IMG/VR virus record: IMGVR_UViG_3300028829_005183
Location: 49,340 to 113,339 of that record
DNA: 64,000 bases
Origin: a virus
Direction: 5' to 3' (one strand)
Numbering within the stretch: position 1 is the first letter of the stretch; every line of letters begins with the position of its first letter. Under the pieces are notes generated by a model, which had not been told where the DNA came from, made no database searches, and saw nothing but the letters and a program-made list of their open reading frames with translations. Both the position numbers and the translations under genes were made by a program. This document shows, one piece after another, positions 14,538-49,201 of the stretch.

Positions 14538-14596
14538 CTGATTATCAACACGATAGCTATGATAGTGAGCACAAAAGTAAAAAGTACGGATGATAT

Positions 14597-14627: not shown

Positions 14628-14645
14628 TAGTAATATAGATACATT

Positions 14646-22016: not shown

Positions 22017-22546
22017 GAGTATTAGTGATTATACCAACAAAGTTGGATTCCAAAAGATTGAAGAATAAAAACATTCGTAAGTTAGATGGAAAGCCAATGT
22101 TTCTACATTCAGTAGATTATGCCGATGCTAGTAAACATAATGTAGATATAGTAGTATCTTCAGAAAGTGATGTTGTTAAAGATATCTGTTTAGAGTGGGG
22201 TTGTGCGTTTATGGAACGTTCTACTGAATTATGTGGAGATACTGAAGTTGTTGATGTGTATATCGATGTGGTATCTCAGATAAAAGAGTCCTATGATTTA
22301 GTAGTTGGGCTACAACCAGATAATCCAAATAGAACTCATTCGTTAGATAAGTGTATTCAATATATGCTAGATAACGATTATGATGATTTGATTACTGTAA
22401 ACCCATCGTATAAGAGAAGTGGCTCGGTCCGCATATTTAAGTACGATTACCTAAAGTCAGGCAAAGTAAGTAAACGACTTGGGTGTATCAAAGATGATGC
22501 AACTGATATACACTATGAATCTGATTTGGAAAGTTTGAATAAGTGA
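22013..22546 (+). CDS. NeuA-like cytidylyltransferase, short form
   Basis: 177 residues. VLVIIPTKLDSKRLKNKNIRKLDGKPMF is the nucleotide-binding N terminus of CMP-sugar synthetases (the SKR..KN motif), and VVGLQPDNPNRT fits the LQPTSP loop. The family activates sialic acid or Kdo with CTP. It is shorter than typical NeuA (around 225), lacking part of the C-terminal dimerisation region. The NeuB-like gene lies one gene downstream, so a nonulosonic acid is the likely substrate. Confidence 0.7.
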   Translation: MRVLVIIPTKLDSKRLKNKNIRKLDGKPMFLHSVDYADASKHNVDIVVSSESDVVKDICLEWGCAFMERSTELCGDTEVVDVYIDVVSQIKESYDLVVGLQPDNPNRTHSLDKCIQYMLDNDYDDLITVNPSYKRSGSVRIFKYDYLKSGKVSKRLGCIKDDATDIHYESDLESLNK

Positions 22547-23139
22547 TGGCTATGGAAACTGTAAAAAAACGAGGTGCACTAAAGGCTAAGGCGCTTAAAG
22601 AGGTAAAGCAGATAAAAGAGATGTGGGGTGATTCAACTCCACTAATTGCGGATATCGGTGCAAATATAGGATATTACACAGAATCGTTTTCAGAAATATT
22701 TTCGGATAGTAAAATACACTCATATGAACCACACCCGTATAATTTACAACACCTTTCGAAGTTAAGTAGTAATCTAATCAACATACACGCTTATGGGTTG
22801 TTCGATACTGATACTAAACTAACGATTGGTGTACCTGAAAGTAGGCAGAATAACAATGGATTATTCAGTATCCATCATACCACAAATGGTATTGAGGTAG
22901 ATTTAAAAAATGCTAATGGTGAGGAGATTAGACCAGATATCGTTAAGATTGATGTTGAGGGTTCTGAACCACAAGTGTTAAGTTGTACTGAATTCTTTGA
23001 GAATACAAAGTTGATACTTATCGAAATTGTTATCGATGATAATTTTGGTAGTAACGATGATGTAGTATCCAAATTAAAATCGATGGGATTCACCCATATA
23101 AAAAATACAAGCAAAAACAATCAGTTATGGTCAAGGTAA
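22546..23139 (+). CDS. FkbM family methyltransferase
   Basis: 197 residues. LIADIGANIGYYTESF (33-48) is SAM motif I, HSYEPHPYN follows, and VKIDVEGSEPQVL (about 131-143) is the FkbM signature. Likely methylates a sugar hydroxyl. ATG at 22546 overlaps the previous stop; a second ATG at 22552 is equally possible. Confidence 0.82.
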   Translation: MAMETVKKRGALKAKALKEVKQIKEMWGDSTPLIADIGANIGYYTESFSEIFSDSKIHSYEPHPYNLQHLSKLSSNLINIHAYGLFDTDTKLTIGVPESRQNNNGLFSIHHTTNGIEVDLKNANGEEIRPDIVKIDVEGSEPQVLSCTEFFENTKLILIEIVIDDNFGSNDDVVSKLKSMGFTHIKNTSKNNQLWSR

Positions 23140-23927
23140 TCGCAGAAATAGGTTGGAATCATTGTGGTGATATGGAACTCGCCAAAGAAATGATTCTTGC
23201 AGCAAAAGAAAGTGGAGCAACTTACGCAAAGTTCCAAAGTTGGTCAGTTAGTAGACTCAAGCCGGGTGCTTGGGATGAAGATGGTCGTAGAGAGATTTAC
23301 GAAAAAGCAGAACTTACGAAAGAGCGGCATATTGAATTAATCAATTATTGCGATGAGGTAGGTATCAAATTCATGTCAAGTGTATTCAGTATCAAAGATG
23401 CTGAACTTCTTGTTGAGTTGGGCGTTGAGGACGTGAAGATTCCAAGCTTTGAATCTCGCAACCACAAATTAATTAGGTATTGTGATGATAATTTCAAAAG
23501 AGTGTTCATGTCAACAGGCACATCTACCTTTGATGAGATTAAAGATAGTGTAAAAAATATTTGGAATTCTGAGTTTTATTTATTACATTGTGTATCAACA
23601 TACCCGTGTAATCCATCTATGGCAAATCTTCCTAGAATGAAATTGTTAAGTGAGTTGGGATTCCCTATTGGATACTCAGACCATATTCAAGGAGTTGAAT
23701 CTGCTAAAGTAGCTATTGGGTGGGGTGCATCTGTAATTGAAAAGCACTTTACAATAAATAACGAACTGCCGGGTCGTGATAATAAGTTTGCAGTATTACC
23801 TCACCAAATGAAGGACCTAACTGAATACATAGAAATGATTGAGGAGATGATGGATTCACATGGTAGTGATTACCAACAATCCGAAACAGATTCACGAAAT
23901 AATTACACTGGTAGGTTCGATGGATAA
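23127..23927 (+). CDS. NeuB-like nonulosonate synthase, lacking SAF domain
   Basis: 266 residues. KVIAEIGWNHCGDMELAKEMI, YAKFQSW, FMSSVFSIKDAELL, VFMSTGTSTFDEI, LLHCVSTYPC and IGYSDHIQG follow N-acetylneuraminate synthase in order, ending with IEKHFTINNELPGRDNKFAV. These enzymes condense phosphoenolpyruvate with an amino-sugar to make sialic-type acids. Usual NeuB is about 345 residues because of a C-terminal antifreeze-like SAF domain that is missing here. It overlaps upstream and downstream genes. Confidence 0.88.
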   Translation: MVKVIAEIGWNHCGDMELAKEMILAAKESGATYAKFQSWSVSRLKPGAWDEDGRREIYEKAELTKERHIELINYCDEVGIKFMSSVFSIKDAELLVELGVEDVKIPSFESRNHKLIRYCDDNFKRVFMSTGTSTFDEIKDSVKNIWNSEFYLLHCVSTYPCNPSMANLPRMKLLSELGFPIGYSDHIQGVESAKVAIGWGASVIEKHFTINNELPGRDNKFAVLPHQMKDLTEYIEMIEEMMDSHGSDYQQSETDSRNNYTGRFDG

Positions 23928-24561
23928 CGTGAGTGTAATCATACGAAATCACAATGAGGGTGAGTACATTGGATTCGCTATACAATCGGTGTTGGACTAC
24001 ATACCAAATGCTGAGATATTGGTGATTGATGACCACTCAACAGATGATTCGTTAGAAGTGGTTAGGTTGTTTAACAATCGTGGTGATATAAAGATAACTA
24101 CGATTGATGGTTACACTCCTGGAAAGGCAATCAATTTCGGAGTAGAGCTCGCCAAGCACAATACGATATTAGTACTATCAGCACATTCTCAGATTGTTAA
24201 GATGGATTTGGATTATGTAACCACTCGGCTAAAAACACATTCAGCAGTATTTGGGAATCAAACTCCAATTTATAGAGGAAAGAAAATATCTAAAAGGTAC
24301 ATCTGGTCACACTTTGTAGATAGAGAGGTAGCTGATATGCACTCTATGATTGAAGATAGGGCATTTTTACACAATGCGTTTTGCTTCTACAACAAATCAG
24401 ATTTGGTAAATACCCCATTCGATGAATCTCTTCCAGGGAAAGAAGATAGGTATTGGGCGATTGATATTTTAGAAAACGGTAAAACATATTTATATACACC
24501 AAGTATTGAAGTAAACCACTACTATACGGGCAACGGAGCTACTTGGAAAGGATTAGGATAA
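23920..24561 (+). CDS. GT2 family glycosyltransferase
   Basis: 213 residues from the ATG at 23920 inside the end of the NeuB-like gene. VSVIIRNHNEGEYIGFAI and AEILVIDDHSTDDSLEVV are the standard GT2 opening (nucleotide-binding aspartates), and GKAINFGVELAKHNTILVL leads to the position of the metal motif, here SAHSQ. Likely transfers a sugar within this cassette. Confidence 0.85.
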   Translation: MDNVSVIIRNHNEGEYIGFAIQSVLDYIPNAEILVIDDHSTDDSLEVVRLFNNRGDIKITTIDGYTPGKAINFGVELAKHNTILVLSAHSQIVKMDLDYVTTRLKTHSAVFGNQTPIYRGKKISKRYIWSHFVDREVADMHSMIEDRAFLHNAFCFYNKSDLVNTPFDESLPGKEDRYWAIDILENGKTYLYTPSIEVNHYYTGNGATWKGLG

Positions 24562-25397
24562 TGAAGATATTAGTTACAGGAGGTGCTGGATTCGTAGGAA
24601 CAAACCTCATTAAACGATTATTGGGTGAAGGGCATGATGTAGTTTCGATAGACAACTACTATACTGGTAAGATAGAAAACCATCAGAAAGGGTGTAAATA
24701 TCTGAATCATGACCTCAGAAACCTTACTGAATTTATGGATGTTGATGTTGTATTTCATCTCGCTGCGATTGCACGGATTCAACCTTCATTTAAATTACCA
24801 AAAGAATACTTTACAACAAATGCAAATGCCACACTAAACTTAGTTGATTGGTGCGCTAAGAATAATGTTCCATTAATTTATGCAGGTTCATCATCAAAGC
24901 ATAGTGGTAGATTTAAAAACCCATACACATTTTCTAAAGATGTAGGTGAGGATATTATATCACTCTACCAAGAACACTATGGATTACAATCATCAATTAC
25001 AAGGTTCTACAATGTATATGGGCCACATCATTTGAAAGATGGTGGTTATTGTACTGTAATTGGAAAGTGGGAGAAGTGTATTGAAGAGGGTAGACCTCTT
25101 ACAATCTATGGAGATGGTACAAAGCGAAGAGATTTTACTCACATTGATGATATTGTAGATGCTCTGGTTAAGATTATGGAACAATCAGCATATGGTTATG
25201 ATTTTGAATTAGGTAAAGGTAAGAACTACTCTATCCAAGAAATTGCAGAAATGTTCAATTACAGTGATATCGTATATGAAGATAATAAACCAGGTGAGGC
25301 ACAAATTACACTTTGTGAGGATACACTTGCCAATGAAATTTTGGGATGGACACCCACTAAAAAAATTGAAGATTATATAAAACGATTAAAGTTATGA
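24561..25397 (+). CDS. NAD-dependent epimerase/dehydratase
   Basis: 278 residues from the ATG at 24561 (TAATG overlap). The extended SDR fold is clear: MKILVTGGAGFVGTNLI at the N terminus, FHLAAIARIQPSF, the catalytic YxxxK in NPYTFSKDVGE, RFYNVYGPHH and GDGTKRRDFTHIDDIV. UDP-glucose 4-epimerase-like enzymes have this order. It would supply an epimerised NDP-sugar for the glycan. Confidence 0.9.
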   Translation: MKILVTGGAGFVGTNLIKRLLGEGHDVVSIDNYYTGKIENHQKGCKYLNHDLRNLTEFMDVDVVFHLAAIARIQPSFKLPKEYFTTNANATLNLVDWCAKNNVPLIYAGSSSKHSGRFKNPYTFSKDVGEDIISLYQEHYGLQSSITRFYNVYGPHHLKDGGYCTVIGKWEKCIEEGRPLTIYGDGTKRRDFTHIDDIVDALVKIMEQSAYGYDFELGKGKNYSIQEIAEMFNYSDIVYEDNKPGEAQITLCEDTLANEILGWTPTKKIEDYIKRLKL

Positions 25398-25999
25398 AAA
25401 CAACAAAAGAAATACTTGATGGTATTCCCGATAAGTATGGTTCAGAAAAGAACACAACATCGTTAAAATGGAAAGAAGATGTTATAGAGTTCTTTAGGAA
25501 TAAAGAACTGATATCGTGTCTTGAGTTGGGAACTTGGCATGGTAGAAGTACAAGAATTCTATCCGAGATATTTAAAGATGTGTGGACTGTTGAGCTTGTA
25601 CAACACAGAGTTGATAATGCACGGGAGTTTTGCAAGGATAAATCTAACATCACATTTGTATGTGGAAACGCATACTTAGATAAAACCTACAGAAGATTTC
25701 CACAACACTTTGATGTTGTTGTTATAGACTGCGACCACACCCACAGTTCGGTTATAAAGGATATTGAAAGGGGGTTATCTTATGCACGACCTGGTAGTAT
25801 TCAGTATTTTGTATTTGATGATTATGGGCATTCAGAATTGGAAGGAGTTCACACCGGAATCAAACACTGTATAAAAAAGTATGGGTTACGGGTAGAAAAT
25901 TACATAGGTCATCCTGCGGGAACGACTATAAATCGTGGTAAGAAACCACCATTTACATTATTTGATTATGAAGGTTTAATTGTAAGTTCTGAAAAGTGA
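25394..25999 (+). CDS. Class I SAM-dependent methyltransferase
   Basis: 201 residues. CLELGTWHGRSTRILSEIF (about 37-55) is motif I, VWTVELVQHRVDNAREF follows with the ribose-binding acid, and FDVVVIDCDHTHSSVI is motif II/III, as in the Methyltransf_24 group. The target (sugar or other) is not known. Confidence 0.8.
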   Translation: MKTTKEILDGIPDKYGSEKNTTSLKWKEDVIEFFRNKELISCLELGTWHGRSTRILSEIFKDVWTVELVQHRVDNAREFCKDKSNITFVCGNAYLDKTYRRFPQHFDVVVIDCDHTHSSVIKDIERGLSYARPGSIQYFVFDDYGHSELEGVHTGIKHCIKKYGLRVENYIGHPAGTTINRGKKPPFTLFDYEGLIVSSEK

Positions 26000-26757
26000 A
26001 GAAGAATATAATATTTATTCCAGCAATTGATGCTGGTAGGGGTAGACACCACGCATATAATTACAGTATCCAATCTTGGAAGAATTGGGCTAAGAAGCAT
26101 GATGTGGAAGTTTTAGTTTGGGATACTCCATTGTACACTTGGGATGAGATGACTATTCCGTGGCAAAGGTATCATCTGTTTAAGATTTTAGACCATAATG
26201 AGATTGAGTTCGACCAAGTCCTCATGGTGGATTCAGATACAATAGTCCACCCGGATACACCCAACTTTTTTGAAATGACCGAGCGGAAATACACAGGTGT
26301 TTTGGATTTGGGTTGTTGGGAATGGACAGGTCGCTCGCTACGACACTACAAAGATGTGTTTGATGGGTATAGGCTCGATAGAGGTATGTATTTCAATGGT
26401 GGGTTTCAGATTGTAAATGAATCACATCGTGAATTCTTCGATTTGGTTTTGGATTTCTACTCTAAGAATCAATCTACCTTAGTAGCCAAACAAAAAGCTG
26501 GGTTGGGAACAGACCAGACTCCAATTAACTATCTAGCTCAGATGAATGGTATCGATTTAAAAATGTTACCATCAACATACAATCTACACCATATGGTCAG
26601 TAAGAATCTACTAAACTTTGGGCAGTCTTGGTGGGGGGATAGTATGGAGAATTTGTATGAGCAAGCTTGGGTGTACCACTTCAATGCTATACCTACCAAT
26701 AAGCTAAATCGTAATTCAGAATATTTCCTAAAAAGAGCATACGAAGAACTATGGTAA
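25996..26757 (+). CDS. GT-A glycosyltransferase (GT8-like)
   Basis: 253 residues with a GTG start at 25996 overlapping the preceding TGA. VLMVDSDTIVHPDTPNFFEM near 74-93 holds the DxD motif of retaining GT-A enzymes, and RGMYFNGGFQIVNESH the FNGG acceptor-site loop. The last bases overlap the next gene. Confidence 0.75.
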   Translation: MKKNIIFIPAIDAGRGRHHAYNYSIQSWKNWAKKHDVEVLVWDTPLYTWDEMTIPWQRYHLFKILDHNEIEFDQVLMVDSDTIVHPDTPNFFEMTERKYTGVLDLGCWEWTGRSLRHYKDVFDGYRLDRGMYFNGGFQIVNESHREFFDLVLDFYSKNQSTLVAKQKAGLGTDQTPINYLAQMNGIDLKMLPSTYNLHHMVSKNLLNFGQSWWGDSMENLYEQAWVYHFNAIPTNKLNRNSEYFLKRAYEELW

Positions 26758-27698
26758 GTATAGCATTCATATCAGAACTACCATTCGATGGTAGAGTTCC
26801 GAGAAATCACCCACATATGAGAACAGAATTTGCTCAGATGTGTGCGTTGGGTGCGGACCACTACAACTATAAAAGTATATCAACTATCGAACGTAGTTAT
26901 GACCATATAGTGTTGTTGATATCAAAAAGCGATGCTATCAGAGATTGGTTATACAACTCACCGAATTTGGTTACTGAACTGCGAGGTGTTGGTAGTAAGA
27001 TTTGGTTTATGCAGGAAGCAACTGCACAGGTTTATCAACAATTTGAATTACATCATCAAATTAGACATTACAACCTACTTCAAGAAGTTGATGGTATCCT
27101 CACAGAGAATGTTACAGATTACAACTACTTTAGGGGGTTGGTTGGTGAAAGTAAGGAAATACATACAATACCAACCCTTATCATACCAGATGATTTTTTG
27201 AATCTAAGAAATTCAAATCGTTTGGATAAATCAATGTTGGGTGGTAACTTTACAAAGTGGTATGCTGGGTTTGATTCATATTTGGTAGCTACAGAGTTTG
27301 ATAACCATATATCCATTCCTAAAATGAGAACGGTCGCAAACGAATCAAATCTGGTCGAAGTTCTACCACACGTTCAATTCAATGAGTGGATGAAAATTCT
27401 ATCGGAATACAAATATGCTGTACACCTTATGCCAAATGTAACGGCGGGTACATTCAATCTGAATTGTTCCTTTTTGGGCATACCGTGTATAGGATACGCA
27501 CAATCAGATACACAACGATTATGCCAACCCAAACTATCAGTTGAGAAGTATGATTTAGAATCAGCTAGAGGTTTGGCTAAGATGTTGAGAGATGATAAAG
27601 ATTTTTACAATGAATGTTCTAAAGATGCTATAGAGAATCACGACAAATACTTTAGTGAGGTGGTATTCTTAGAACATATGAATTCAATTTTTAATTAA
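26751..27698 (+). CDS. Probable GT-B glycosyltransferase
   Basis: 315 residues. IAFISELPFDGRVPRNHPHMR at the start and the C-terminal sequence HLMPNVTAGTFNLNCSFLGIPCIGY, with a small-residue loop like the donor site of GT4 enzymes, suggest a GT-B fold. Central IWFMQEATAQVYQQFEL is not diagnostic. Ten bases separate it from the next gene. Confidence 0.55.
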   Translation: MVSIAFISELPFDGRVPRNHPHMRTEFAQMCALGADHYNYKSISTIERSYDHIVLLISKSDAIRDWLYNSPNLVTELRGVGSKIWFMQEATAQVYQQFELHHQIRHYNLLQEVDGILTENVTDYNYFRGLVGESKEIHTIPTLIIPDDFLNLRNSNRLDKSMLGGNFTKWYAGFDSYLVATEFDNHISIPKMRTVANESNLVEVLPHVQFNEWMKILSEYKYAVHLMPNVTAGTFNLNCSFLGIPCIGYAQSDTQRLCQPKLSVEKYDLESARGLAKMLRDDKDFYNECSKDAIENHDKYFSEVVFLEHMNSIFN

Positions 27699-27707
27699 TA
27701 CAAACAA

Positions 27708-28790
27708 ATGAAGTATTCTTCACAAGCGTTAACATATGATGATATTCAACTAATACCATCATTTTCAGAAATAAAATCAAGAAAGAACATCAAACTGAAT
27801 ACACTCCTAAGTAGGAGGTATGGTTTGTTGAATCCGATAGTTGCATCACCAATGGATACGGTGTGTGAGTACAATATGGCACTAAAGATGGCTCAGTTGG
27901 GTGGTGTTGGGTGTATTCACCGATTCATGTCCATAGTGGAACAATGTGATATAGTTAGTATGTTACACCAACGTATCAATGGTGAGCATGAATCACCAAA
28001 CATTAATCAGCTGTGGGGTGTGATGTATGATGATTGGCACGCCGAACAACGTTCAGTTCCGATTATGGCAGCGATTGGTGTTCAGCAAGAGGATAGAGAG
28101 CGAGCTAAAAGTTTGGTTTATGCTGGAGCAAACGTTCTATTGATTGATGTAGCACACGGTGACCATCAAAATGTTATCGATATGGTAGAGTGGTGTAAGA
28201 GTAATCTTAATGAGAACGTCGATATCATCGCAGGGAACATAGCAACAGCGGAAGCAGCAGAGAGGTTAGAAGCAGCTGGTGCCGATGGGTTGAGAGTTGG
28301 TATCGGTGGTGGTTCGCTATGTACAACTAGAATCAAAACAGGATTCGGAGTACCAAATGTAACATCGATTCAAGAAGTTGATTTAGTAGCAACCACGCCA
28401 ATTATGGCAGATGGTGGAATCCGTACCAGTGGTGATATCTCAAAAGCACTTGCCATCGGAGCTGATAATGTGATGTTGGGTTCTCTTTTGGCTGGAACCG
28501 ATGAATCGCCAGGAAAGATTTTGGAAACATCCAGAGGATTGTATAAGAGGTACAGAGGCTCTGCTTCGCTGGAAACGAAAACAACACATGGACAAGAAGC
28601 TAGAAACGTAGAGGGTGAATCTACTACAATTCCATATAAGGGCGGTGTTAGATTCATTATCAGCGGTTTGTTAGATGGTGTTAAATCAGCACTGAGTTAT
28701 GCGGGAGCTAACACTTTGTTGGAGTATTCGCCGAAATATGTAGTAGTAACAAATAGTGGTATTAGAGAAGCTAAACCACACTTAATTTAA
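27708..28790 (+). CDS. IMP dehydrogenase/GMP reductase family enzyme, no CBS domains
   Basis: 360 residues. [14 protein letters not shown] at the N terminus, [20 protein letters not shown], and the active-site loop [18 protein letters not shown] near 198-215 with its catalytic cysteine define the family. Bacterial IMPDH is about 490 residues with two CBS domains, absent here; GMP reductases are about 345. The flap region ([23 protein letters not shown]) is not clearly either one. It would act in guanine nucleotide supply; GDP-sugar supply for the neighbouring glycosyltransferases is an alternative idea. Confidence 0.88.
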
Positions 28791-31435: not shown

Positions 31436-34400
31436 ATGAAAAAATACATATTAGGTCTACTAATATCAATACCATATATTGTATTAGGTCAAAATTCGTG
31501 GGTAAATATTACCCTGTTAACCGATAATTATCCAAGTGAAACGACTTGGAAAATAACACCTCCAGGTGGTTCGCCAATAATAGCAAGTAATGATACTAAT
31601 ATGATACCATTGACTGTGTATCAACAGTATTTAGAAGTGGGTGGTGATATTGTTGTTGAGATTGAAGATTCCTTTGGGGATGGGTTAGATGCAACCGCAT
31701 TTGGTGGCTCAATAGGATATTTTCTTATTGAGAATTCATGCCAAGATACAATATTATTTGTAGAAGGTAACTTTGGTTCATTCTACACAGATACCTTAAC
31801 TATCGCACCATGCGCACCACCAATTGGGGGATGTATAGACCCACTGGCAGTAAATTACGACCCAAACGCAACACTATCCGATAGCAGCTGTCTCTATGAA
31901 GTTGACTTCACATTAAATATGAATTCGTATCCTGGCACTTTCACAACACCATATGTTGCTGGTACTTTTAATGGTTGGACTGACCAACACCCAATGACCG
32001 ATGTGGATGGGGATAATATATGGGAAGTAACAATCCCAATACCAAATGGACCACACCTTTGGAAATTTATGTTAGATAATTGGGTAGCTCAGGAATTACC
32101 CCCAAATGTACAAAATAACCCATTGGCGAGTTGTTTCGTATTAGACCAATTTGGATTTACAAACAGAGCGTTATTAGTTTTAGGGCCAACTACATTAGAT
32201 GATTATTGTTGGGAAAGTTGCTACGATTGTGGTACTATTTTAGGATGTACCGACTCCACATCCAATGTATATAATCCGTGGGCTACAGATGATGATGGTT
32301 CTTGTGTATCAGCAGGTCCATCCGCTTGTGATACTGATGAGACATATATCCAAATAGTATTTACTCCCGATAACTACCCATCTGAGAGTGGGTATAAGGT
32401 GTATGATGACTTCGGATTATTGTTAGAATATCTGCCAGGTTCACTTAGTGGGTCAACTCCTGGCGTACCTATCACCGATTATGTGTGTGTTGATTCAAAT
32501 GTATTGGTAGACATAGTTCTTGAAGATGTTTATGGAGATGGACTATGTGGTACTTGTTTTGGTGGTACGGTGAATGGTAATATTCAGGTGTTGGATTGTG
32601 ATGGTAACGAACTATACAACCTACAAGATACAATATTAGATGGTAACTTTGGATATCAGTTTACAACACCACAATTCAATACAGGTGATATTTGTTCAGG
32701 TGGTGGTACAACCGATGTATATGGGTGTATGAATCCATTTTCTACAACATATGATTCTACTGCAACCGTTGATGATGGAAGTTGTGGCCCACTAAGAGTA
32801 GTAGGATGTACTGATACATCAGCATTTAACTATGACCCTAACGGAAATACAAGTGAGGTTATGACCGGAGACTACACCTTAGAAATCTTAGATGGTGCAT
32901 CAAATGGTTGGGGTGGAACGTGGTTAGGAATTAAGCAAGGTGATTGGTTATCACCACAATATAAATTAGGACCAAACGATGGAAACTCATTAACTTTCAA
33001 TGTTCCTCTGAACATATATGAGCCAATCCAAATCTATTTGTTTACAACACCACAATCAGCAACCTCAATTGCACAGGTCGCTTACAACCTAACAGGACCT
33101 GAGGGTGATACAATTTTAGATGTACCTTATTGGGGGGCACAATCATTACAATTCCCAATCGTTCAAACAACTACGACACAGCCAACTTTTGGTGATGTGT
33201 GTATTCCTACAATTATTGGATGTACAGATACTAACTCTTTGAACTACGACCCACTCGCTAACACCGATGACGGTAATTGTGTTCAGATAGTGTATGGTTG
33301 TACAAACCCACTCGCATTTAACTATGATTCCAGCGCTAACACAGATGATGGTTCTTGCATCTCTGTAGTTGTTGGATGTATGGATTCTACGGCATACAAT
33401 TTTGACCCGAACGCAAACACACCGGGAGCGTGTATTCCAATTATCTACGGGTGTACAGACCCTAACTCATTCAACTACAACCCAAGCGCAAATACGGATG
33501 ATAGCTCGTGTATTCCAATTATCTACGGGTGTACAGATGTAACGTCGTTCAATTACGATTCAACGGCGAACACAGATGATGGTTCTTGTATCGCAAGAGT
33601 ATATGGGTGTACAGATACATCATCGTTTAACTACGACCCTCTTGCTAATACTGATAATGGTTCTTGTGTTGCCATTGTATTGGGATGTATGACACCAACA
33701 TCAATCAACTATGACCCACTTGCGAACGTAAACGATGGTTCTTGTATCCCAATCATATATGGTTGTACAGACTCGACTTCGTTCAACTATAACCCATTAG
33801 CTAATACGGATGATAGCTCGTGTGTACCTATTGTGTTAGGGTGTACTACTCCGACCTCAATCAACTATGACCCACTCGCTAACACCGATGATGGTACTTG
33901 TATTCAACCAATTTATGGATGTACGGACTCGACTTCGTTTAACTACAACCCATTGGCTAATACTGATAATGGCTCTTGTATACCCATCGTATTAGGGTGT
34001 ACCACCCCAAGCTCCATTAATTACAATCCCTCAGCTAATACGGATGATGGGAGTTGTATTCCAATCATCTATGGGTGTACGGATTCGACCTCATTTAATT
34101 ACAACCCATTGGCTAATACTGATAATGGTTCTTGTGTTGCCATTGTATTGGGATGTACAACACCTACTTCAATAAACTACAATCCGAATGCCAACACCGA
34201 TGATGGTTCGTGTATTCCATTTATTTATGGATGTACTGATTCAACCTCATTTAATTACAATCCATTGGCTAATACGGATGATGGCAGTTGTGCTCCATTT
34301 ATTTATGGATGTACCGACCCCAATGCATTTAACTATGACCCTAATGCGAACACAAACCAAGTATCAGCAACTGATTTATCCAACCCATGCATTCCGATTG

Positions 34401-34948
34401 TATATGGTTGTACCGATTCTACTGCTGTGAACTACGACCCTAATGCGAACGTAGATAATGGTAGTTGTATCGCTTCGGTGGTGGGTTGTACGGATGTAGC
34501 CGCTTGGAATTGGAATCCAGCAGCGAACGTATCTGATTCGACAGTGTGTTTATATGATGCAGGATGTATTGATGGGCCAGGAAATCCATATTGGTTGAAT
34601 GACCCGTGCTATGCGTGGGTAATTGATATAGATAACTATTGCTGTAATAACGAATGGGATAGTGATTGTCAAAATCTTTATGATTATTGTGAAAATGGAT
34701 GGCCATTGGATGTTGATGAGCTTGCATTTAACAATATCATAATTTATCCAAACCCAACTAAAAACGTAGTTAACGTAAGAAGTAATTTGGATATCACATA
34801 TAGTGTGTATGATTTCTCAGGAAAATTATTGATTGAGAACTCCAAAGATGAGGTAATTGATATGAACCCATATCCAAGTGGTGTATATCTGATACAAATA
34901 AGTTTCAACAACAAAATTTATCGAAGAAAAATTGTGAAGGAGAACTAA
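31436..34948 (+). CDS. Giant secreted repeat protein with T9SS type A sorting domain
   Basis: 1170 residues. A signal peptide (KKYILGLLISIPYIVLGQ) is followed by a CBM48-like beta-sandwich near 156-250 (VAGTFNGWT, then DGDNIWEVTIPIPNG), isolated GCTD-type units, and from about 592 a tandem array of cysteine-containing units with consensus GCTD..SFNY.P.ANTDDGSC. The last 75 residues, with IIYPNPTKNVVNV, YDFSGKLL and PSGVYLIQI ending in basic residues, form a type A C-terminal sorting domain read by the Bacteroidetes type IX secretion system. It is thus built for export to the host surface. Adhesion or glycan binding is inferred; a phage home is unusual. Confidence 0.9.
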   Translation: MKKYILGLLISIPYIVLGQNSWVNITLLTDNYPSETTWKITPPGGSPIIASNDTNMIPLTVYQQYLEVGGDIVVEIEDSFGDGLDATAFGGSIGYFLIENSCQDTILFVEGNFGSFYTDTLTIAPCAPPIGGCIDPLAVNYDPNATLSDSSCLYEVDFTLNMNSYPGTFTTPYVAGTFNGWTDQHPMTDVDGDNIWEVTIPIPNGPHLWKFMLDNWVAQELPPNVQNNPLASCFVLDQFGFTNRALLVLGPTTLDDYCWESCYDCGTILGCTDSTSNVYNPWATDDDGSCVSAGPSACDTDETYIQIVFTPDNYPSESGYKVYDDFGLLLEYLPGSLSGSTPGVPITDYVCVDSNVLVDIVLEDVYGDGLCGTCFGGTVNGNIQVLDCDGNELYNLQDTILDGNFGYQFTTPQFNTGDICSGGGTTDVYGCMNPFSTTYDSTATVDDGSCGPLRVVGCTDTSAFNYDPNGNTSEVMTGDYTLEILDGASNGWGGTWLGIKQGDWLSPQYKLGPNDGNSLTFNVPLNIYEPIQIYLFTTPQSATSIAQVAYNLTGPEGDTILDVPYWGAQSLQFPIVQTTTTQPTFGDVCIPTIIGCTDTNSLNYDPLANTDDGNCVQIVYGCTNPLAFNYDSSANTDDGSCISVVVGCMDSTAYNFDPNANTPGACIPIIYGCTDPNSFNYNPSANTDDSSCIPIIYGCTDVTSFNYDSTANTDDGSCIARVYGCTDTSSFNYDPLANTDNGSCVAIVLGCMTPTSINYDPLANVNDGSCIPIIYGCTDSTSFNYNPLANTDDSSCVPIVLGCTTPTSINYDPLANTDDGTCIQPIYGCTDSTSFNYNPLANTDNGSCIPIVLGCTTPSSINYNPSANTDDGSCIPIIYGCTDSTSFNYNPLANTDNGSCVAIVLGCTTPTSINYNPNANTDDGSCIPFIYGCTDSTSFNYNPLANTDDGSCAPFIYGCTDPNAFNYDPNANTNQVSATDLSNPCIPIVYGCTDSTAVNYDPNANVDNGSCIASVVGCTDVAAWNWNPAANVSDSTVCLYDAGCIDGPGNPYWLNDPCYAWVIDIDNYCCNNEWDSDCQNLYDYCENGWPLDVDELAFNNIIIYPNPTKNVVNVRSNLDITYSVYDFSGKLLIENSKDEVIDMNPYPSGVYLIQISFNNKIYRRKIVKEN
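33214..34560 (+). repeat. Coding tandem repeats, GCTD...DDGSC units
   Basis: About 17 units of roughly 78 bases (26 residues). Through the middle they alternate between YGCTDSTSFNYNPLANTD and LGCTTPTSINY types, giving a higher-order period of about 156 bases. Synonymous sites differ between copies, so the array is not a fresh duplication throughout. Confidence 0.9.
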
Positions 34949-37977: not shown

Positions 37978-38994
37978 ATGCCAAATTACAATAGAAAAGA
38001 TATGCCACAAATTAAAACCCAAAATTTGGCTAAAGCATTGGATGCTGTGGCTGATAGGGTCAGGGTATCTAAAGAGATGGTTTCCACATCTAAACTGAAG
38101 AGTTCTCAAAAAGAACTTTACAACGATAAGGTAAAGGCTATTGCTGATAAGCTAACTTCACCTAAAAAAATGAAACCGATAATTATATCTAAAGATAATT
38201 ACATTGTCGATGGCCATCATAGATGGGCAGCCGCAGCCTATAAATTTGGTGATGGGGTTAAAATACCAGCCCACAAAATTCACTTAAATGTAAATTCATC
38301 TATAAAGTTGTATAAGATGGTAGCTCAATCTATCGGAGAGATGGTTAGTGAACTAAAGGAAGCTATCAACATTCCGATTGAGATTGGTGATACTGTTTTG
38401 GGTGGTAAGTTCAAAAACAAAAGAATTGTTGTTAAATCAATCAGTAAAAATGAAAAGGGTGATATTACAATCAATGGTAGACCTCTTCTAAAGTATAGAT
38501 TGTTAGATGAGTCCACCGCACCAAATCATAATGGTAAATCAGCACCATATGGTAGTGGGTACGATGAACTCAAAGAAGCTTGCTGGAAGGGCTATAAACA
38601 AGTTGGTGGTAAGATGAAAAATGGTAAGATGGTGCCAAATTGTGTACCAATCAACGAAATCCCAATGCCAGACTTGAAAAAGATTGATACATTTGCTGAT
38701 AAGAAACTTAATCCAGTTGATGTAGTAATCACAGATAAACACTTCTTTGATAGGTTAAACGACCCTAGAAATGGGAAAGAGATTACATCAGCAGAGTTAA
38801 TTGGATTCTTCAAACGATTATCCAAACACAAAAAAACGTTCGTTAATTTTCTCGATAAATACAAATCAGTAGTTGCCGTAGATGATAGAACTGATATTAA
38901 CATTCCGTTTATGAAGCGCGCGAATAAAGCAATCGCTAAAACGGTAATGCGTAAAAAAGATTTTAAAACACCCGACAAAAAGTTGGATATTTGA
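37978..38994 (+). CDS. ParB/sulfiredoxin-like nuclease-domain protein
   Basis: 338 residues. The N-terminal domain contains MKPIIISKDNYIVDGHHRWAA, the ParB/Srx (GHHR) motif. The middle has ACWKGYKQVGGKMKNGK...PNCVP with two cysteines, and the C terminus VITDKHFFDRLNDPRNGKEI to AKTVMRKKDF, both of which I recall as shared segments of T4-like marine phage proteins. It may be a packaged virion protein with nucleotide or DNA-processing activity. Two bases separate it from the gene upstream. Confidence 0.75.
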   Translation: MPNYNRKDMPQIKTQNLAKALDAVADRVRVSKEMVSTSKLKSSQKELYNDKVKAIADKLTSPKKMKPIIISKDNYIVDGHHRWAAAAYKFGDGVKIPAHKIHLNVNSSIKLYKMVAQSIGEMVSELKEAINIPIEIGDTVLGGKFKNKRIVVKSISKNEKGDITINGRPLLKYRLLDESTAPNHNGKSAPYGSGYDELKEACWKGYKQVGGKMKNGKMVPNCVPINEIPMPDLKKIDTFADKKLNPVDVVITDKHFFDRLNDPRNGKEITSAELIGFFKRLSKHKKTFVNFLDKYKSVVAVDDRTDINIPFMKRANKAIAKTVMRKKDFKTPDKKLDI

Positions 38995-39013
38995 TAAAAA
39001 GTTCGTATATTAA
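38983..39013 (+). promoter_or_regulatory. Promoter for metalloprotease gene
   Basis: GTTGGATATTTG (TTG at 38983) and TATATTAA at 39006, 23 bases apart, in the last codons of the ParB-like gene. The likely GTG start (39015) is nine bases after the first T of the -7 box. Confidence 0.6.
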
Positions 39014-39014
39014 A

Positions 39015-39779
39015 GTGATAAAGTTAAAGAACATACTATTGGAAGGGAAATACGATAGACTCGTTGGTAATATTAACAAAGCAATTTTCAAATCAATGAG
39101 GAGTGCTATTGGGGGAAGTGGTACGCAGGAAAAACCTAAGAAGTATAAGGGATACGAAGTTCGTAAAGACCCTATACCATTTCAGGAGTTATCTGATATG
39201 TTTCAAGCAGAGAGTAGAGCTATATATGTGGGGGAGTTTTCAGACGATAAAGCTGGTGTTGATGTAGATGTTGATTTGAAGTTGGCAATCTCATCAGATG
39301 GTGTTATGCCAGGAAAGTTTTACATTGATGGAAATGCTGAAGATGATGAGTTCCCACAAATGGAAGTTATTATTGGTATCCATCCAGAAGATGCGAGTAG
39401 TGGTAAGGTTTTTTCAAAAATACAACCTGTATTGAGAGATTTGGTTAGACATGAAATAGAACACCTAACACATGGCAGAGGTTCTGGTTCAGTAAAACCA
39501 TCTAAGATAATGAGAGGTGATAAGGCAATGCGGCAAAAGATTCGTTCGAATCCAAAGTTGTACTACAAATACTTCTTACTACCAAAAGAGGTGGATGCTA
39601 ACATACATGGGTTGTACTCAAAGGCCAAAACTATGAAACAACCATATCAGAAGGTAGTTGATGATTATTTAGATTCATTGAGGGATGATGGTATCATTAC
39701 CGATAAGAATCGTAAACAGATATACACTAAGTGGAAGAATCGAATTCCAAAGATTGGTGGTATCCCAAAGTTGAAGTGA
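39015..39779 (+). CDS. Zinc metalloprotease, candidate internal virion protein
   Basis: 254 residues. RHEIEHLTHGRGSG near 148-161 has the HExxH zinc motif. The first residues, VIKLKNILLEGKYDR, resemble a T4 capsid-targeting sequence followed by a prohead-protease site (L-L-E/G). The upstream TTG at 38991 is also in frame, but the GTG at 39015 fits the promoter. Substrate unknown. Confidence 0.75.
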   Translation: MIKLKNILLEGKYDRLVGNINKAIFKSMRSAIGGSGTQEKPKKYKGYEVRKDPIPFQELSDMFQAESRAIYVGEFSDDKAGVDVDVDLKLAISSDGVMPGKFYIDGNAEDDEFPQMEVIIGIHPEDASSGKVFSKIQPVLRDLVRHEIEHLTHGRGSGSVKPSKIMRGDKAMRQKIRSNPKLYYKYFLLPKEVDANIHGLYSKAKTMKQPYQKVVDDYLDSLRDDGIITDKNRKQIYTKWKNRIPKIGGIPKLK

Positions 39780-39780
39780 T

Positions 39781-40368
39781 ATGAAGAAAGAGGATTTCGT
39801 AAATAAGATATTCAATCTGAATGAGGGTAAGATACTCAGAGTATTTGATTTTGATGATACTTTGGCTACAACCACATCGAACATCTATGTGAAACACAAA
39901 GATGGTACTGAAACTAAGATGGACCCTGCCAAATACGCAAAGTATAATGAGAAGCCAGGTGATGAATACGACTTCAGAGAGTTCAACGGAATGTTGAACA
40001 ACCCAAAGGTAATCAAAAAGAATTTGAAACTGCTACAACGTATGTTGGATAACCCACAGAAAAAAGTTACCATACTAACGGCTCGTAAGTTGGGATTCCC
40101 AGTCAGAAAGTTTTTTAAGGATGAGTATGGTTTGGATGTTTACGTTGTAGCATTGGGTAGTAACAATCCAAAAGATAAATCTGATTGGATTGAAAAGCAT
40201 ATCAAAAAGGGATACACCGATATCGCATTTATGGATGATTCATCTAAGAACATCAAAGCTGTAGATAGACTGAAGTCAAAATACCCAAACGTTCGTATCA
40301 AAACCCATTTGGTGCGTGAATTTATCGAAGAAGATGTACAAAAATATGTACAAAAGCTAATTCAGTAA
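39781..40368 (+). CDS. HAD-superfamily phosphatase, candidate internal virion protein
   Basis: 195 residues. LRVFDFDDTLA (catalytic aspartates, about 19-29), VTILTARKLG (motif II) and IAFMDDSSKNIKA (motif IV) give a complete HAD phosphatase of polynucleotide-kinase-phosphatase type. The first 18 residues (KKEDFVNKIFNLNEGK) look like a capsid-targeting sequence with a cleavage site after NLNE. It may dephosphorylate nucleic-acid 3' ends or a small molecule. Confidence 0.85.
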   Translation: MKKEDFVNKIFNLNEGKILRVFDFDDTLATTTSNIYVKHKDGTETKMDPAKYAKYNEKPGDEYDFREFNGMLNNPKVIKKNLKLLQRMLDNPQKKVTILTARKLGFPVRKFFKDEYGLDVYVVALGSNNPKDKSDWIEKHIKKGYTDIAFMDDSSKNIKAVDRLKSKYPNVRIKTHLVREFIEEDVQKYVQKLIQ

Positions 40369-40392
40369 CTTAAAATCAATATTTATAATCAA

Positions 40393-40635
40393 ATGAACTA
40401 CGAAAAGAAAGTAATGGAAATGGCATATGGGGCCCTTATGAAAAGGGATTTCCAATGGAGTCCAGAGTTTAGTGTGGAGATGCGCAATCAACTACTAAAC
40501 TTACTTCTTGAATACTTTACTGATATTGAACATTATGAAAAGTGTGCCAATATTGTAAAGTTACAAAACAAAAGTTGGGAGATTATGAATGGAAATATTA
40601 GCAAAGCAAATACCACAGGAAGTTCAATCAGTTAA
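40393..40635 (+). CDS. Small protein of unknown function
   Basis: 80 residues, helical in the middle (MRNQLLNLLLEYFTDIEHY). Not recognised. A short AT-rich motif (ATATTTATAATC) precedes it. Confidence 0.55.
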   Translation: MNYEKKVMEMAYGALMKRDFQWSPEFSVEMRNQLLNLLLEYFTDIEHYEKCANIVKLQNKSWEIMNGNISKANTTGSSIS

Positions 40636-40750
40636 AGGTTGGATTGTATATGTGATGGATGTTACGGGAAGGCCCATCACAGCAGAGATTTGTGATTTAG
40701 ATTACCTTGTCCCAACTATACTCAAATTCGAATCGATTTTTGATTTATGA
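40589..40750 (+). CDS. 53-residue protein of unknown function
   Basis: Begins MEILAKQIPQEVQSVKGW within the end of the preceding gene and ends with TGA overlapping the ATG of the next. The sequence (VYVMDVTGRPITAEICDLDYL) looks like a folded strand-rich peptide. The overlap pattern favours a real gene. Confidence 0.55.
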   Translation: MEILAKQIPQEVQSVKGWIVYVMDVTGRPITAEICDLDYLVPTILKFESIFDL

Positions 40751-40968
40751 AACTATTTATACTAAATGATAATGTTAATTCGTTTGACCACGTTGTAAGG
40801 TGTATTCAGAGATATTTGAATTACCCATATATGCAAGGTTGTTCAATCGCAGATATTGTACATAACACTGGAAAGTGTTTGGTAAAAGAATCTGATGATG
40901 AGGAGCTAATTAAAAGTGTATATGAGATGTTGGTCGAAGAGGGTTTACATCTGAGAATAGAAGGATAA
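40747..40968 (+). CDS. Small protein of unknown function
   Basis: 73 residues (MKLFILNDNVNSFDHVVRCI...). I recall loosely similar openings (NDxxNSFxHV) in ClpS-type adaptors, where the strand-helix start binds substrate; HVVRCIQRYLNYP and GKCLVKESDDEEL keep that order. A ClpS-like adaptor is possible, not established. Confidence 0.6.
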   Translation: MKLFILNDNVNSFDHVVRCIQRYLNYPYMQGCSIADIVHNTGKCLVKESDDEELIKSVYEMLVEEGLHLRIEG

Positions 40969-40969
40969 T

Positions 40970-41146
40970 ATGGCAAACTCTAATAAAAAATCAAAAGGTT
41001 TAGGTGATTCAATCGCCAAAGTAACCGCTGCAGCAAAACTTGATATTATTGCTGAGAAGATTGCACACAAATTGGGCAAAGAAGATTGCGGTTGTTCAGA
41101 GCGACAGGAGAAGCTAAACAACCTATTCCCATACAAAGGAAGGTAA
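40970..41146 (+). CDS. 58-residue phage-type protein with CGC motif
   Basis: Opens MANSNKKSKGLGDSIAKVTAA and ends with EDCGCSERQEKLNNLFPY, a cysteine-containing motif I recall in many short phage proteins. It is separated from the next gene by one base. Function unknown. Confidence 0.65.
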   Translation: MANSNKKSKGLGDSIAKVTAAAKLDIIAEKIAHKLGKEDCGCSERQEKLNNLFPYKGR

Positions 41147-41147
41147 T

Positions 41148-43049
41148 ATGAACCTAAAAGAATTCATACAAAACGAAATCAAGTCCACACTATTAGAAGA
41201 TGTAGAGTTGGACCAGATGTTCAACAAAGCTGAGCCAGTATCAGAATCTACCATTGAGTGGAAAGATGCGGAAGAAGGTGATTCGGCATTGGTGGTGAAA
41301 GATAACAAAATGGGTTTGATTATCAGAGCATATGGTAGAAAGTTCCATTTGAAGTTTGTTGATGGTACAATGAAAACCTATGATGCTAAAGAACTGAAGT
41401 TCTACAAATTCGAATCTGTTAATGAGGGACCTGGTTGGTCTAAATCAGCACTAGCAGCATTCAATCGTAAACCAATGCCAGGTCGTTACTTCATTTCAGA
41501 TGAAAATGGTAATATATTAGAAAAGGGTTTGAAAACCAGTAGGTCTTGGGTTACATACTTACAGCGATTCGGTAAGGCTAGTTATGGTTACTTAGGCGGT
41601 CAAAAGCCAACGGTAGTTAACATTCACGATGGTAAGAAAAACAATGAAGTTGTTGACCAATACTATTGGAGAGATAAGTCTGGTAAGGGTAACTACTCTA
41701 TCGATATCGATGACCCAACTCTTGGAAGCTTCGATAAGATTGACCCTAAGTATGTAAACTACAAAGAGATTGAGAAACAATTGGGTATCAAAAAAGAATC
41801 GGTTAGCGAAGGAATGGTTTCACCGTCTCGTGGCCACAACTACTATGAGTTAACCAAAGATACTCCAATCAAATATATCTCTGGTCATTCGGGTCTCGGT
41901 TTAGAAGTTCCTGGTGTGTTACTCCATAATGAATATAGTACGTTCAAAGGTAAGAAAGGTGCATATATCATAGATTACTTTGGGGCATACTTCTATGTAG
42001 ACCTTAAAAACAAATTTGCATCAAAAATTGCCAATCCAAGAAGTAGTGAACAAACTAAAGGCTTGATGAAAAATGTAAAGGTTATTGATAAAGCACCTCA
42101 ACACTCAGATTGGAAGAAATTTATGAAGGAATCAGTAAACGAAGAGCAAATTGATGAAAAACTAATCACATTCTCTAACAGAGCACCATATGGGCAAATC
42201 GTATTTATGGCAGGTGGTGCTGGTAGTGGTAAGGGATTCGCAATTGGTAACTTCATAGATTCAGCTGGATTCAAAGTGAGAGATGTTGATGAGATGAAAA
42301 ATGCTGTTGCTAAGTTAGACCAGTTGGGTAAGTTCTCAGTAGATGATTGGATGAAGAAGTATGGTGATAAGTTGCCAGAGGACCAGAAAGCACACGTTGA
42401 AGAATTCGTTGTGGGTAGAGGTTTAAATATCGAAGATGTTGCAGCTGATTTGAAAAATCCAAACAATGTAGCATCACTACACTATATTGTTGATGCTATG
42501 GGATTAAAAGATAAGTGGTTAATCAATATGTTAAAAGGTAAAGAGAACAAAGAAACACTACCTAACCTATTGTTTGATATCACAGCTAAGAAAGTAAAAT
42601 CTATCACATCTGTAATCAAACCATTGGTTGATGCTGGATACGATGCTAATAACATTCACCTTATTTGGGTACTAACCAACTACCACTTAGCGGTAGCTCA
42701 GAATAAGAGTAGAAGCAGAGTTGTGCCGGATGATATTCTATTACAAACACATGAAGGTGCTGCAAAAACAATTTGGAGTATTCTAACTGGTGGGCTTCCG
42801 AAGGGATTAAATGGTAGGGTTGATGTGATTCTGAACAACAGAGAGAACACTGTGATGTTCAAAGATAAAGATGGGAACGTGCTGACCGGCGCAGTTAAAG
42901 GATTTAAATCACTTCCTATTAAGAAGCAAGGTGGTGGTATTCTACCTGAGAAAATTTGGAAGAAGATTCTCTATAGCTGGATTGATAGTAACGGACCAAA
43001 AACTATCAGTTTGAAAAAACCATTGGATAGACAAATAAACAAAAAATAA
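41148..43049 (+). CDS. P-loop kinase-like protein with capsid-targeting-like N terminus
   Basis: 633 residues. The first 20 residues (NLKEFIQNEIKSTLLEDVE) resemble a capsid-targeting sequence. Domains are joined by similar linkers ESVNEGP (about 90), ESVSEGM (218) and ESVNEEQ (327). From about 345, IVFMAGGAGSGKGFAIGNF is a Walker A loop, with RDVDEM downstream, IHLIWVLTNYHLAVAQNKSRSR and a His near 528; the order recalls zeta-toxin-type kinases. It may be a packaged enzyme whose linkers are cut by the prohead protease. Target unknown. Confidence 0.75.
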   Translation: MNLKEFIQNEIKSTLLEDVELDQMFNKAEPVSESTIEWKDAEEGDSALVVKDNKMGLIIRAYGRKFHLKFVDGTMKTYDAKELKFYKFESVNEGPGWSKSALAAFNRKPMPGRYFISDENGNILEKGLKTSRSWVTYLQRFGKASYGYLGGQKPTVVNIHDGKKNNEVVDQYYWRDKSGKGNYSIDIDDPTLGSFDKIDPKYVNYKEIEKQLGIKKESVSEGMVSPSRGHNYYELTKDTPIKYISGHSGLGLEVPGVLLHNEYSTFKGKKGAYIIDYFGAYFYVDLKNKFASKIANPRSSEQTKGLMKNVKVIDKAPQHSDWKKFMKESVNEEQIDEKLITFSNRAPYGQIVFMAGGAGSGKGFAIGNFIDSAGFKVRDVDEMKNAVAKLDQLGKFSVDDWMKKYGDKLPEDQKAHVEEFVVGRGLNIEDVAADLKNPNNVASLHYIVDAMGLKDKWLINMLKGKENKETLPNLLFDITAKKVKSITSVIKPLVDAGYDANNIHLIWVLTNYHLAVAQNKSRSRVVPDDILLQTHEGAAKTIWSILTGGLPKGLNGRVDVILNNRENTVMFKDKDGNVLTGAVKGFKSLPIKKQGGGILPEKIWKKILYSWIDSNGPKTISLKKPLDRQINKK

Positions 43050-47047: not shown

Positions 47048-49201
<2,154 letters not shown>

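What the first reader, a model, noticed from the sequence alone, without database searches (positions are those of the whole stretch)
37978..43049. Candidate packaged enzymes with capsid-targeting-like N termini
The metalloprotease (VIKLKNILLEG), HAD phosphatase (MKKEDFVNKIFNLNEG) and P-loop kinase (MNLKEFIQNEIKSTLLED) all begin with a short amphipathic helix followed by an L/I/N-x-E site. T4 internal proteins are carried into the head by such sequences and cut by the prohead protease at similar sites. A nuclease-like ParB protein is the neighbour. The block may be a set of enzymes injected with the DNA.
Basis: inference. Interest (0 to 1): 0.7.

Follow-up and report, generated by a model that had tools for sequence, protein, structure and literature searches.

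The report
Swappable phage-head cargo cassettes
A virus of bacteria seems to make enzymes and small swappable protein modules joined in chains, with likely cutting sites for the virus's own capsid protease at the joints, probably so that they ride inside the capsid and are released as separate parts.

Summary
The three N-terminal leaders are there. By itself only the HExxH protein's leader stands out: most similar of 116 N-termini to the leaders of this phage's own head proteins (HAD 16th, kinase 32nd). The comparison is stronger. The 113-kb record encodes an S77 prohead protease (6e-38) and a Gp23 capsid protein. In three related records (two of them 96% identical) the kinase gene lies between that protease and the scaffold and capsid genes. 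A leader precedes the kinase in distant T4-like phages too. Between leader and kinase, relatives carry different small modules; the same modules recur in the neighbouring ParB protein and in core proteins beside the protease. Homology breaks in the kinase and ParB families fall at [LIVM]xE, the T4 type of prohead-protease site, in 182 of 311 cases against 59.7 +- 6.4 at random; D and K controls are depleted. One swap looks recent. I read this as head-targeted precursors, some of them polyprotein-like cassette arrays, cut in the prohead. The kinase fold is zeta-toxin/AvrRxo1/polynucleotide-kinase-like. Packaging, cleavage and injection are inferred. ParB lacks a leader and HAD's is not conserved.

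The parts
37978..38994 (+). ParB-like protein (338 aa) with a cassette region; no N-terminal leader
   Evidence: phrog_2859 E 1.5e-22 over aa 3-128; Pfam ParBc_2 E 0.021, under cut-off; [LI]xE after residues 128, 178, 200, 227
38362..38511 (+). middle module of the ParB protein (aa 129-178)
   Evidence: ParB aa 126-176 match L024 kinase-protein aa 95-145 at 78%
38512..38658 (+). two small cassettes in the ParB protein (aa 179-200 and 201-227, the second with the CWKGY...NCVP motif)
   Evidence: same modules in kinase proteins of L019 and L024 at 78%; the second found in 238 of 50,697 phage records, 223 of them named as Synechococcus, Prochlorococcus or cyanophage
39015..39779 (+). HExxH protein, possible metalloprotease, from the GTG start
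   Evidence: 11 homologues aligned, HExxH motif conserved; no PDB sequence or fold match
39015..39044 (+). leader of the HExxH protein, predicted cut after Glu10
   Evidence: rank 1 of 116 N-termini by similarity to head leaders; L4 and E10 invariant in 11 of 11; pLDDT 32 over residues 1-10
39781..40368 (+). HAD-family phosphatase
   Evidence: DUF2608 over cut-off (E 2.9e-5), phrog_415 polynucleotide kinase E 6.4e-8
39781..39825 (+). leader-like N terminus of HAD, Glu15-Gly16
   Evidence: present in close homologues, absent from 4 of 13
40747..40968 (+). ClpS-like adaptor, in the block, without leader
   Evidence: PF02617 E 4.2e-10, over cut-off
41148..43049 (+). kinase cassette protein (633 aa)
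   Evidence: phrog_5268 E 5.3e-45 over aa 332-595; relatives
41148..41198 (+). leader of the kinase protein, predicted cut after Glu17
   Evidence: a [LIVMF]xE precedes the kinase core within the first 30 aa in 61 of 66 distinct complete homologues
41199..41426 (+). cassette 1 of the kinase protein, ends at ESVNE
   Evidence: site after residue 93; by eye the same cassette in L015, there ending ESITE and followed by another module
41427..41810 (+). cassette 2 of the kinase protein, ends at ESVSE
   Evidence: site after residue 221; by eye the same words inside the ParB protein of L015
41811..42143 (+). cassette 3 of the kinase protein, ends at ESVNE
   Evidence: site after residue 332; residues 217-333, that is cassette 3 with its two border sites, match a protein of L122 at 72%, E 1e-53, in which no kinase domain was reported
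42159..43046 (+). P-loop kinase domain (aa 338-633)
   Evidence: model pLDDT 78.4, pTM 0.73; AvrRxo1-ORF1 Z 12.7, zeta toxin Z 12.4, polynucleotide kinase Z 12.2

Best explanation
The kinase protein, and probably the HExxH protein, are head cargo of a T4-like phage. Their N-terminal leaders bind them into the prohead core; the phage's S77 protease then cuts after [LIVM]-x-E, removing the leader. In the kinase protein the internal ESV(N/S)E sites would also be cut, so that one precursor yields a free kinase and several small modules. Because modules begin and end at protease sites, they can be exchanged between proteins and phages without harming their neighbours, which gives a changeable payload. 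On infection the payload would enter the cell with the DNA. Shown here: leaders, protease gene, head-cluster position of the kinase in three related records, module exchange, and breakpoints at [LIVM]xE. Inferred: targeting, cleavage, retention in the head, injection. The cellular target of the kinase is unknown; from its fold I guess a nucleotide, a sugar-nucleotide, NAD or a nucleic-acid end.
For: S77 protease 6e-38 in the record. Gp23 capsid protein with [LIV]xE|A just before its core in 10 of 10 proteins compared and a leader site in 9 of 10 (own row counted once). Kinase gene between protease and scaffold/capsid genes in L029, L032, L033 (the L032 protease, identical to that of L029 and so dropped from that table, confirmed). 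Leader directly before the kinase core in RB16, VmeM32, Mm5, CC2 and many contigs. Modules shared with ParB proteins and with core proteins next to the protease, e.g. L007 kinase protein against L032 core protein 79%. Breakpoint test 182 of 311 against 59.7 +- 6.4; with support of two or more, 117 of 173 against 33.0 +- 5.1; all other proteins 107 of 498 against 88.8 +- 8.1. Cassette 3 of the window matches L122 from site to site. Recent swap, L017 against L007. Two leader-bearing core genes of L113 match parts of the single gene 5 here, which keeps an internal leader-like MKLKDILKE. S77 in 8 of 13 kinase-bearing records tested; three of the other five have their capsid gene so near the contig end that the protease would lie off it, and two show neither gene.
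Against: No virion proteomics was available. The kinase and HAD leaders are not remarkable alone (ranks 32 and 16 of 116). HAD lacks the leader in 4 of 13 homologues. ParB has none. Five of 66 kinase homologues have a cassette at the N terminus instead of a leader, among them the head-cluster ones L029, L032, L033. L029 and L032 are 96% identical over 8.9 kb, so the three head-cluster cases are two lineages. In SPN3US long propeptides with several cleavage sites are cut up and mostly leave the head (PMC10052503, passages), so cassettes might be discarded. The control motif [ADGKNST]xE is also raised at breakpoints, though less (125 against 81.1 +- 7.9), and [LIVM]xN slightly (69 against 54.6 +- 6.3). 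Cassettes are only mildly basic.
Confidence: 0.6

Rival explanations
1. The cassettes are a long propeptide: filler of the prohead core that is cut at several sites and leaves the head, only the kinase being retained. (The odds given here overlap with those of the main reading, which this shares except for the fate of the modules.)
For: SPN3US propeptides of 111-254 residues are cut at several motifs (PMC10052503, passages); T4 core proteins are cut to fragments that mostly leave (PMC9026906, passages).
Against: Cassettes are conserved and reused in unrelated backbones. A cassette of the L007 ParB protein resembles a GNAT acetyltransferase (below Pfam cut-off); the N-terminal cassette of the L033 kinase protein is Pfam DUF3008. 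Some lie after the kinase, as in L006 (by eye).
Confidence: 0.3
2. The [LIVM]xE stretches are flexible linkers and recombination seeds, not protease sites; the long proteins act as uncut multidomain proteins, in the head or in the infected cell.
For: Border DNA can be well conserved: L016 and L017, with unrelated cassettes, share 25 identical bases that encode the border just before the kinase. Multidomain 'polyvalent' proteins of phages are known (PMC5512222, passages).
Against: Borders use varied sequences (LLDE, ELKE, PINE, SVNE) that share only a [LIV]xE, the type seen before the capsid core; D and K variants are not enriched at breakpoints and N only slightly.
Confidence: 0.22
3. The leaders are chance or ordinary N-terminal helices; the block is metabolism (HAD phosphatase, kinase, ClpS, ParB) expressed in the infected cell.
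For: HAD and kinase leaders do not stand out alone; HAD leader absent in 4 of 13; the gene block lies away from the head cluster in this phage.
Against: Head-cluster position in three related records, module sharing with core proteins, leader kept in Straboviridae homologues.
Confidence: 0.15

Closest known systems
T4 internal proteins IPI-IPIII and Alt, with capsid targeting sequences cut by gp21
   Same: Short N-terminal leader ending in L/I-x-E, S77 protease in the genome, enzyme cargo (Alt), variability between related phages (PMC9026906, passages and section 2.6)
   Different: As described there, T4 cargo is one protein per gene; here modules are fused in tandem, with sites between them, and are exchanged between proteins. 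Packaging is not shown here.
Giant-phage (phiKZ, SPN3US) head proteins with multiply cleaved propeptides
   Same: Several glutamate sites in one precursor (PMC10052503, passages)
   Different: There the long N-terminal part is a propeptide, with comparable lengths in related phages; here it is made of exchangeable modules
Polyvalent proteins of phages and conjugative elements; P1 Dar proteins
   Same: Multidomain proteins thought to enter the cell with the DNA; ParB and GNAT domains; P1 DarB has an N-terminal packaging signal (PMC5512222 and PMC9024508, passages)
   Different: In the passages seen, processing is ascribed to built-in peptidase domains, and no prohead-protease sites between domains are named
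Zeta toxin / AvrRxo1 / polynucleotide kinase P-loop kinases
   Same: Fold, Z 12.2-12.7; Pfam Zeta_toxin just over its 22.3-bit cut-off in two homologues, L024 (22.8) and L033 (23.1)
   Different: 12-16% identity in those rows; the window protein itself is under the Pfam cut-off (13.8 bits); substrate unknown

Membership tests
T4-type CTS cargo cut by an S77 prohead protease | S77 protease in the same genome | tested here: met
   PF03420, 6.4e-38, G000 1928-2437
T4-type CTS cargo cut by an S77 prohead protease | short N-terminal leader ending in L/I-x-E, like that of other head proteins of the phage | tested here: inconclusive
   HExxH met (rank 1 of 116); kinase and HAD carry a site but ranks 32 and 16; ParB has none
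T4-type CTS cargo cut by an S77 prohead protease | gene among or beside head genes | tested here: inconclusive
   not in this phage; met for the kinase in L029, L032, L033; near hoc/inh, hoc or gp24 in RB16, Mm5, CC2, VmeM32
T4-type CTS cargo cut by an S77 prohead protease | leader removed at the glutamate; protein present in virions | not testable with these tools
   needs virion proteomics
Polyvalent proteins | several effector domains in one polypeptide | tested here: inconclusive
   kinase plus cassettes mostly without Pfam family; GNAT-like cassette in the L007 ParB protein; no LPD or peptidase domain reported in the window's kinase or ParB proteins
Zeta toxin (PF06414) | family profile over cut-off | tested here: not met
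   window protein 13.8 bits against 22.3; homologues L024 and L033 reach 22.8 and 23.1
Zeta toxin / AvrRxo1 / PNK kinase fold | fold | tested here: met
   Z 12.7, 12.4, 12.2; aligned 207, 192, 163; rmsd 3.6, 3.8, 3.0
Zinc metalloprotease (HExxH) | conserved HExxH motif | tested here: met
   H146, E147 and H150 invariant in 11 of 11
Zinc metalloprotease (HExxH) | zincin fold | tested here: inconclusive
   model pLDDT 68; Foldseek best E 0.46, HtpX only Z 2.8

The most novel reading that the evidence does not exclude
T4-like phages use their capsid protease as a polyprotein processor: one gene encodes a leader, a string of exchangeable mini-effectors and an enzyme, all released inside the head. 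The [LIVM]xE joints make a cassette exchange system, so payloads are reshuffled between cargo, core and ParB proteins of phages of distant hosts.
Probability: 0.4. Interest if true: 0.87.

Novelty: new variant of a known kind. Interest (0 to 1): 0.72.

Why it matters
Several small unknown proteins of phages (DUF3008, the CWKGY...NCVP motif, the KKYKKSIDC...HCAG motif) would get a common explanation: head cargo modules. It would show how phages change their injected payload quickly, give a sequence rule for finding further injected proteins, and offer natural multi-cargo designs for phage-based protein delivery. It can be tested with one virion proteomics experiment.

Tried and rejected
Leader similarity alone: remarkable only for HExxH. 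A stricter leader pattern gave 4 of 119 N-termini in the record (genes 5, 9, HAD, and gene 128 of unknown meaning) against 8 of 619 internal Met; over all loci 27 of 733 against 44 of 4581; it misses the kinase and the GTG-started HExxH protein of the window. Gathering ESVNEA proteins did not clearly enrich an N-terminal site: 15 of 65 closed ORFs against 232 of 1262 controls. Basic charge as a mark of DNA-binding internal proteins: weak. PDB sequence searches for HExxH, HAD and kinase profiles: nothing useful. No match of HExxH to a known fold. I had taken a protein of Mel-JY01 between protease and scaffold for an ADP-ribosyltransferase by eye; Pfam reports no family for it at E 0.01, so I do not use it. 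Papers: no virion proteomics found for a close relative; the Flavobacterium phage paper tried does not mention immuto; the cyanophage proteome tables (PMC3037559, passages) could not be opened. Ten paper searches in all listed no title or abstract that I recognised as describing prohead-protease-bounded exchangeable cassettes; subscription journals are mostly not held, so this is weak evidence of novelty. The breakpoint test treats related proteins as separate after removal of near-identical contexts; its 311 junctions are not all independent. Rows dropped: loci L001, L005, L006, L008, L009 and loci up to 3 kb were left out of the 90 loci compared, and identical proteins were counted once (1974 to 1601).
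Full report
1. Setting. The window is bases 49340-113339 of a 113,339-base virus record, G000. I called ORFs over the whole record in overlapping pieces (144 kept, 128 on the plus strand). The head genes lie outside the window, at G000 0.6-7.6 kb: S77 prohead protease (1901-2527; PF03420 1.3e-36), a 606-aa protein without family (2508-4328, 'gene 5'), a scaffold-like acidic protein (4970-5977, my assignment from position and composition) and a Gp23 major capsid protein (6003-7640; PF07068 1.2e-78). By its capsid protein the nearest isolates in the phage collection are Microcystis phage Mel-JY01 (60%) and Flavobacterium phage immuto (56%).

2. The observation. The three leaders exist. The predicted cut sites are Glu10 of the HExxH protein from a GTG start, Glu15 of HAD and Glu17 of the kinase protein. 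Capsid and core proteins of the same phage start alike: MNLSNILNE|G (capsid), MKLTNLLNLNE|A (gene 5, from its internal ATG), MARRKDLLSE|A (scaffold). Ranked by similarity to these three, HExxH is 1st of 116, HAD 16th, kinase 32nd. In the model of the HExxH protein residues 1-10 have pLDDT 32, which fits a separate leader. In 10 of 10 capsid proteins compared a [LIV]xE|A stands just before the conserved core, and 9 of 10 have an N-terminal site too (the table has 11 rows because the own protein appears twice).

3. The kinase family. In RB16 and a Klebsiella phage the protein starts MKSFKDF(V/T)SLDEALITFGG, in Vibrio phage VmeM32 MLQSFKEFSKQIDEALITFGK, in Morganella phage Mm5 MTLKSFKEFITLDEALITFGG, in Aeromonas phage CC2 MKMKFSEFVQLEEKLMVFG: a leader, then a [LI]xE, then the kinase. 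Among 66 distinct complete contig homologues, 61 have [LIVMF]xE within the first 30 residues ahead of the core (these are related proteins, not independent cases); the other five begin with a cassette. In L029, L032 and L033 the kinase gene stands between the S77 protease and the scaffold and capsid genes; L029 and L032 are 96% identical over 8.9 kb, so these are two lineages. Of 13 kinase-bearing records 8 have S77. Of the five without, three have the capsid gene 2.6-3.3 kb from the contig end on the side where S77 would lie, and two lack both genes.

4. Cassettes. The kinase core starts at residue 87 in L016, 88 in L017, 112 in L021, 377 in L022, 474 in L019, 505 in L007 and 338 in the window. 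What precedes it is a leader and a varying set of small modules, many of them ending in a sequence such as ESVNE; L006/L017 has further modules after the kinase. A crude split of the upstream parts gave 29 segments with a median of 85 aa. The same modules occur in the ParB protein next door, in an ORF just upstream of ParB, and in the core proteins beside S77: for example L007 kinase protein residues 359-442 against the L032 core protein at 79%, L024 kinase protein 149-236 against L021 4439-5035 at 93%, window ParB 178-233 against L019 and L024 kinase proteins at 78%. Cassette 3 of the window with its two border sites (residues 217-333) matches a protein of L122 at 72%. Some modules are wider spread: CWKGY...NCVP in 238 phage records, mostly cyanophages, and the KKYKKSIDC...HCAG module at 91% over 32 residues in Prochlorococcus phage P-TIM68. 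L006 and L007 have a CCA-adding/poly(A)-polymerase-type protein in the HAD slot (Pfam PolyA_pol 7.5e-31 in L006; L007 by eye); in L006 it is fused to HAD, with HAD's leader sequence now internal.

5. Breakpoint test. From an all-against-all comparison of 1601 proteins of 90 loci I took the positions where homology stops although both proteins go on. In the kinase and ParB families (73 and 28 members by the rule; one search used a stricter ParB rule, 18), 182 of 311 distinct breakpoints lie at [LIVM]xE against 59.7 +- 6.4 for random positions in the same proteins (largest of 300 draws: 80). With two or more supporting comparisons it is 117 of 173 against 33.0 +- 5.1. The controls [LIVM]xD (51 against 70.4) and [LIVM]xK (91 against 126.3) are depleted and [LIVM]xN (69 against 54.6) is slightly raised; [ADGKNST]xE is raised too, but less (125 against 81.1 +- 7.9). 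All other proteins: 107 of 498 against 88.8 +- 8.1. One exchange looks recent: L017 and L007 share 98.8% of the 500 bases upstream, 61 of 63 leader bases and 92% of the kinase, while their cassettes do not align beyond 21 bases; the cassette of L016 is 98.9% identical over 183 bases to a stretch of L007's cassette region, by eye its last cassette.

6. Fusion history. In L113 two leader-bearing ORFs of 192 and 63 aa match parts of gene 5 of this phage, which carries internal leader-like sequences MKLKDILKE, MKLTSMLKE and MSFAELMSE. So in this phage the core protein itself looks like a fusion of separate leader-bearing proteins, or the separate genes are a split.

7. What the enzymes are. The kinase domain model (pLDDT 78.4) is closest to AvrRxo1-ORF1 (Z 12.7), zeta toxin (12.4) and a bacterial polynucleotide kinase (12.2), tied within 1; T4 polynucleotide kinase gives 10.4. 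HAD matches a PHROG named polynucleotide kinase (phrog_415, 6e-8), and in RB16 and Mm5 a nucleotidase gene follows the kinase gene. A kinase and phosphatase pair acting on nucleotides or nucleic-acid ends is therefore plausible but untested. The HExxH protein has no recognised fold.

8. How it may work (inferred unless said). Leaders hold the precursors in the core; S77 cuts when the prohead is complete; leaders leave, kinase and perhaps modules stay with the DNA and enter the next cell. T4 supplies these steps for its internal proteins (PMC9026906, passages and section 2.6; PMC10229621, passages). What the passages that I saw do not describe is the tandem, exchangeable arrangement. The main rival is that modules are disposable propeptide, as in SPN3US (PMC10052503, passages).

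9. Verdict. The cassette arrays are the real find.

Noticed in passing
window 40747-40968 and 47051-48658: ClpS-like adaptor (PF02617, 4e-10) between HAD and kinase, kept in this place in close relatives, and a Cpn60/GroEL gene (1.8e-72) 4 kb downstream of the kinase. A phage-encoded N-degron adaptor next to proteins with predicted new N termini is suggestive.
   Followed up: partly
window 31436-34948: 1170-aa protein with many GCTD..NYNP.AN.DDGSC repeats and a C-terminal Por secretion sorting domain (PF18962, 8e-10), a host-type secretion tail in a phage gene; relatives in L018 and L023 differ in length.
   Followed up: partly
window 11300-28790: Run of metabolic genes: the three tested are a glycosyltransferase (11300), a 2-hydroxyacid dehydrogenase (20296) and IMP dehydrogenase/GMP reductase (27708, 4e-100).
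   Followed up: partly
L006 5332-6993 and L007 4600-5742: CCA-adding/poly(A)-polymerase-type protein (PolyA_pol 7.5e-31 in L006) in or fused to the HAD slot.
   Followed up: partly
L010 11668-11898 (RB16 uvsW.1): Small UvsW.1 protein whose domain starts at residue 20 after a leader-like MKSFTEFVNE; possible further head cargo in a T4-like coliphage.
   Followed up: no
L096 9431-10597 (Mel-JY01): 388-aa protein between prohead protease and scaffold-like gene; looked like an ADP-ribosyltransferase by eye, but Pfam reports no family.
   Followed up: partly
G000 4540-4815 (outside the window): Ribosomal protein S21 homologue (PF01165, 6.7e-10) inside the head gene cluster; Mel-JY01 has an annotated S21 gene at a similar place.
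   Followed up: no
L012 (LR756508.1), record positions 156507-158102: In this 484-kb phage the S77 match comes in two pieces about 1 kb apart, each reported in a 576-aa open frame; possible insertion in the protease.
   Followed up: no
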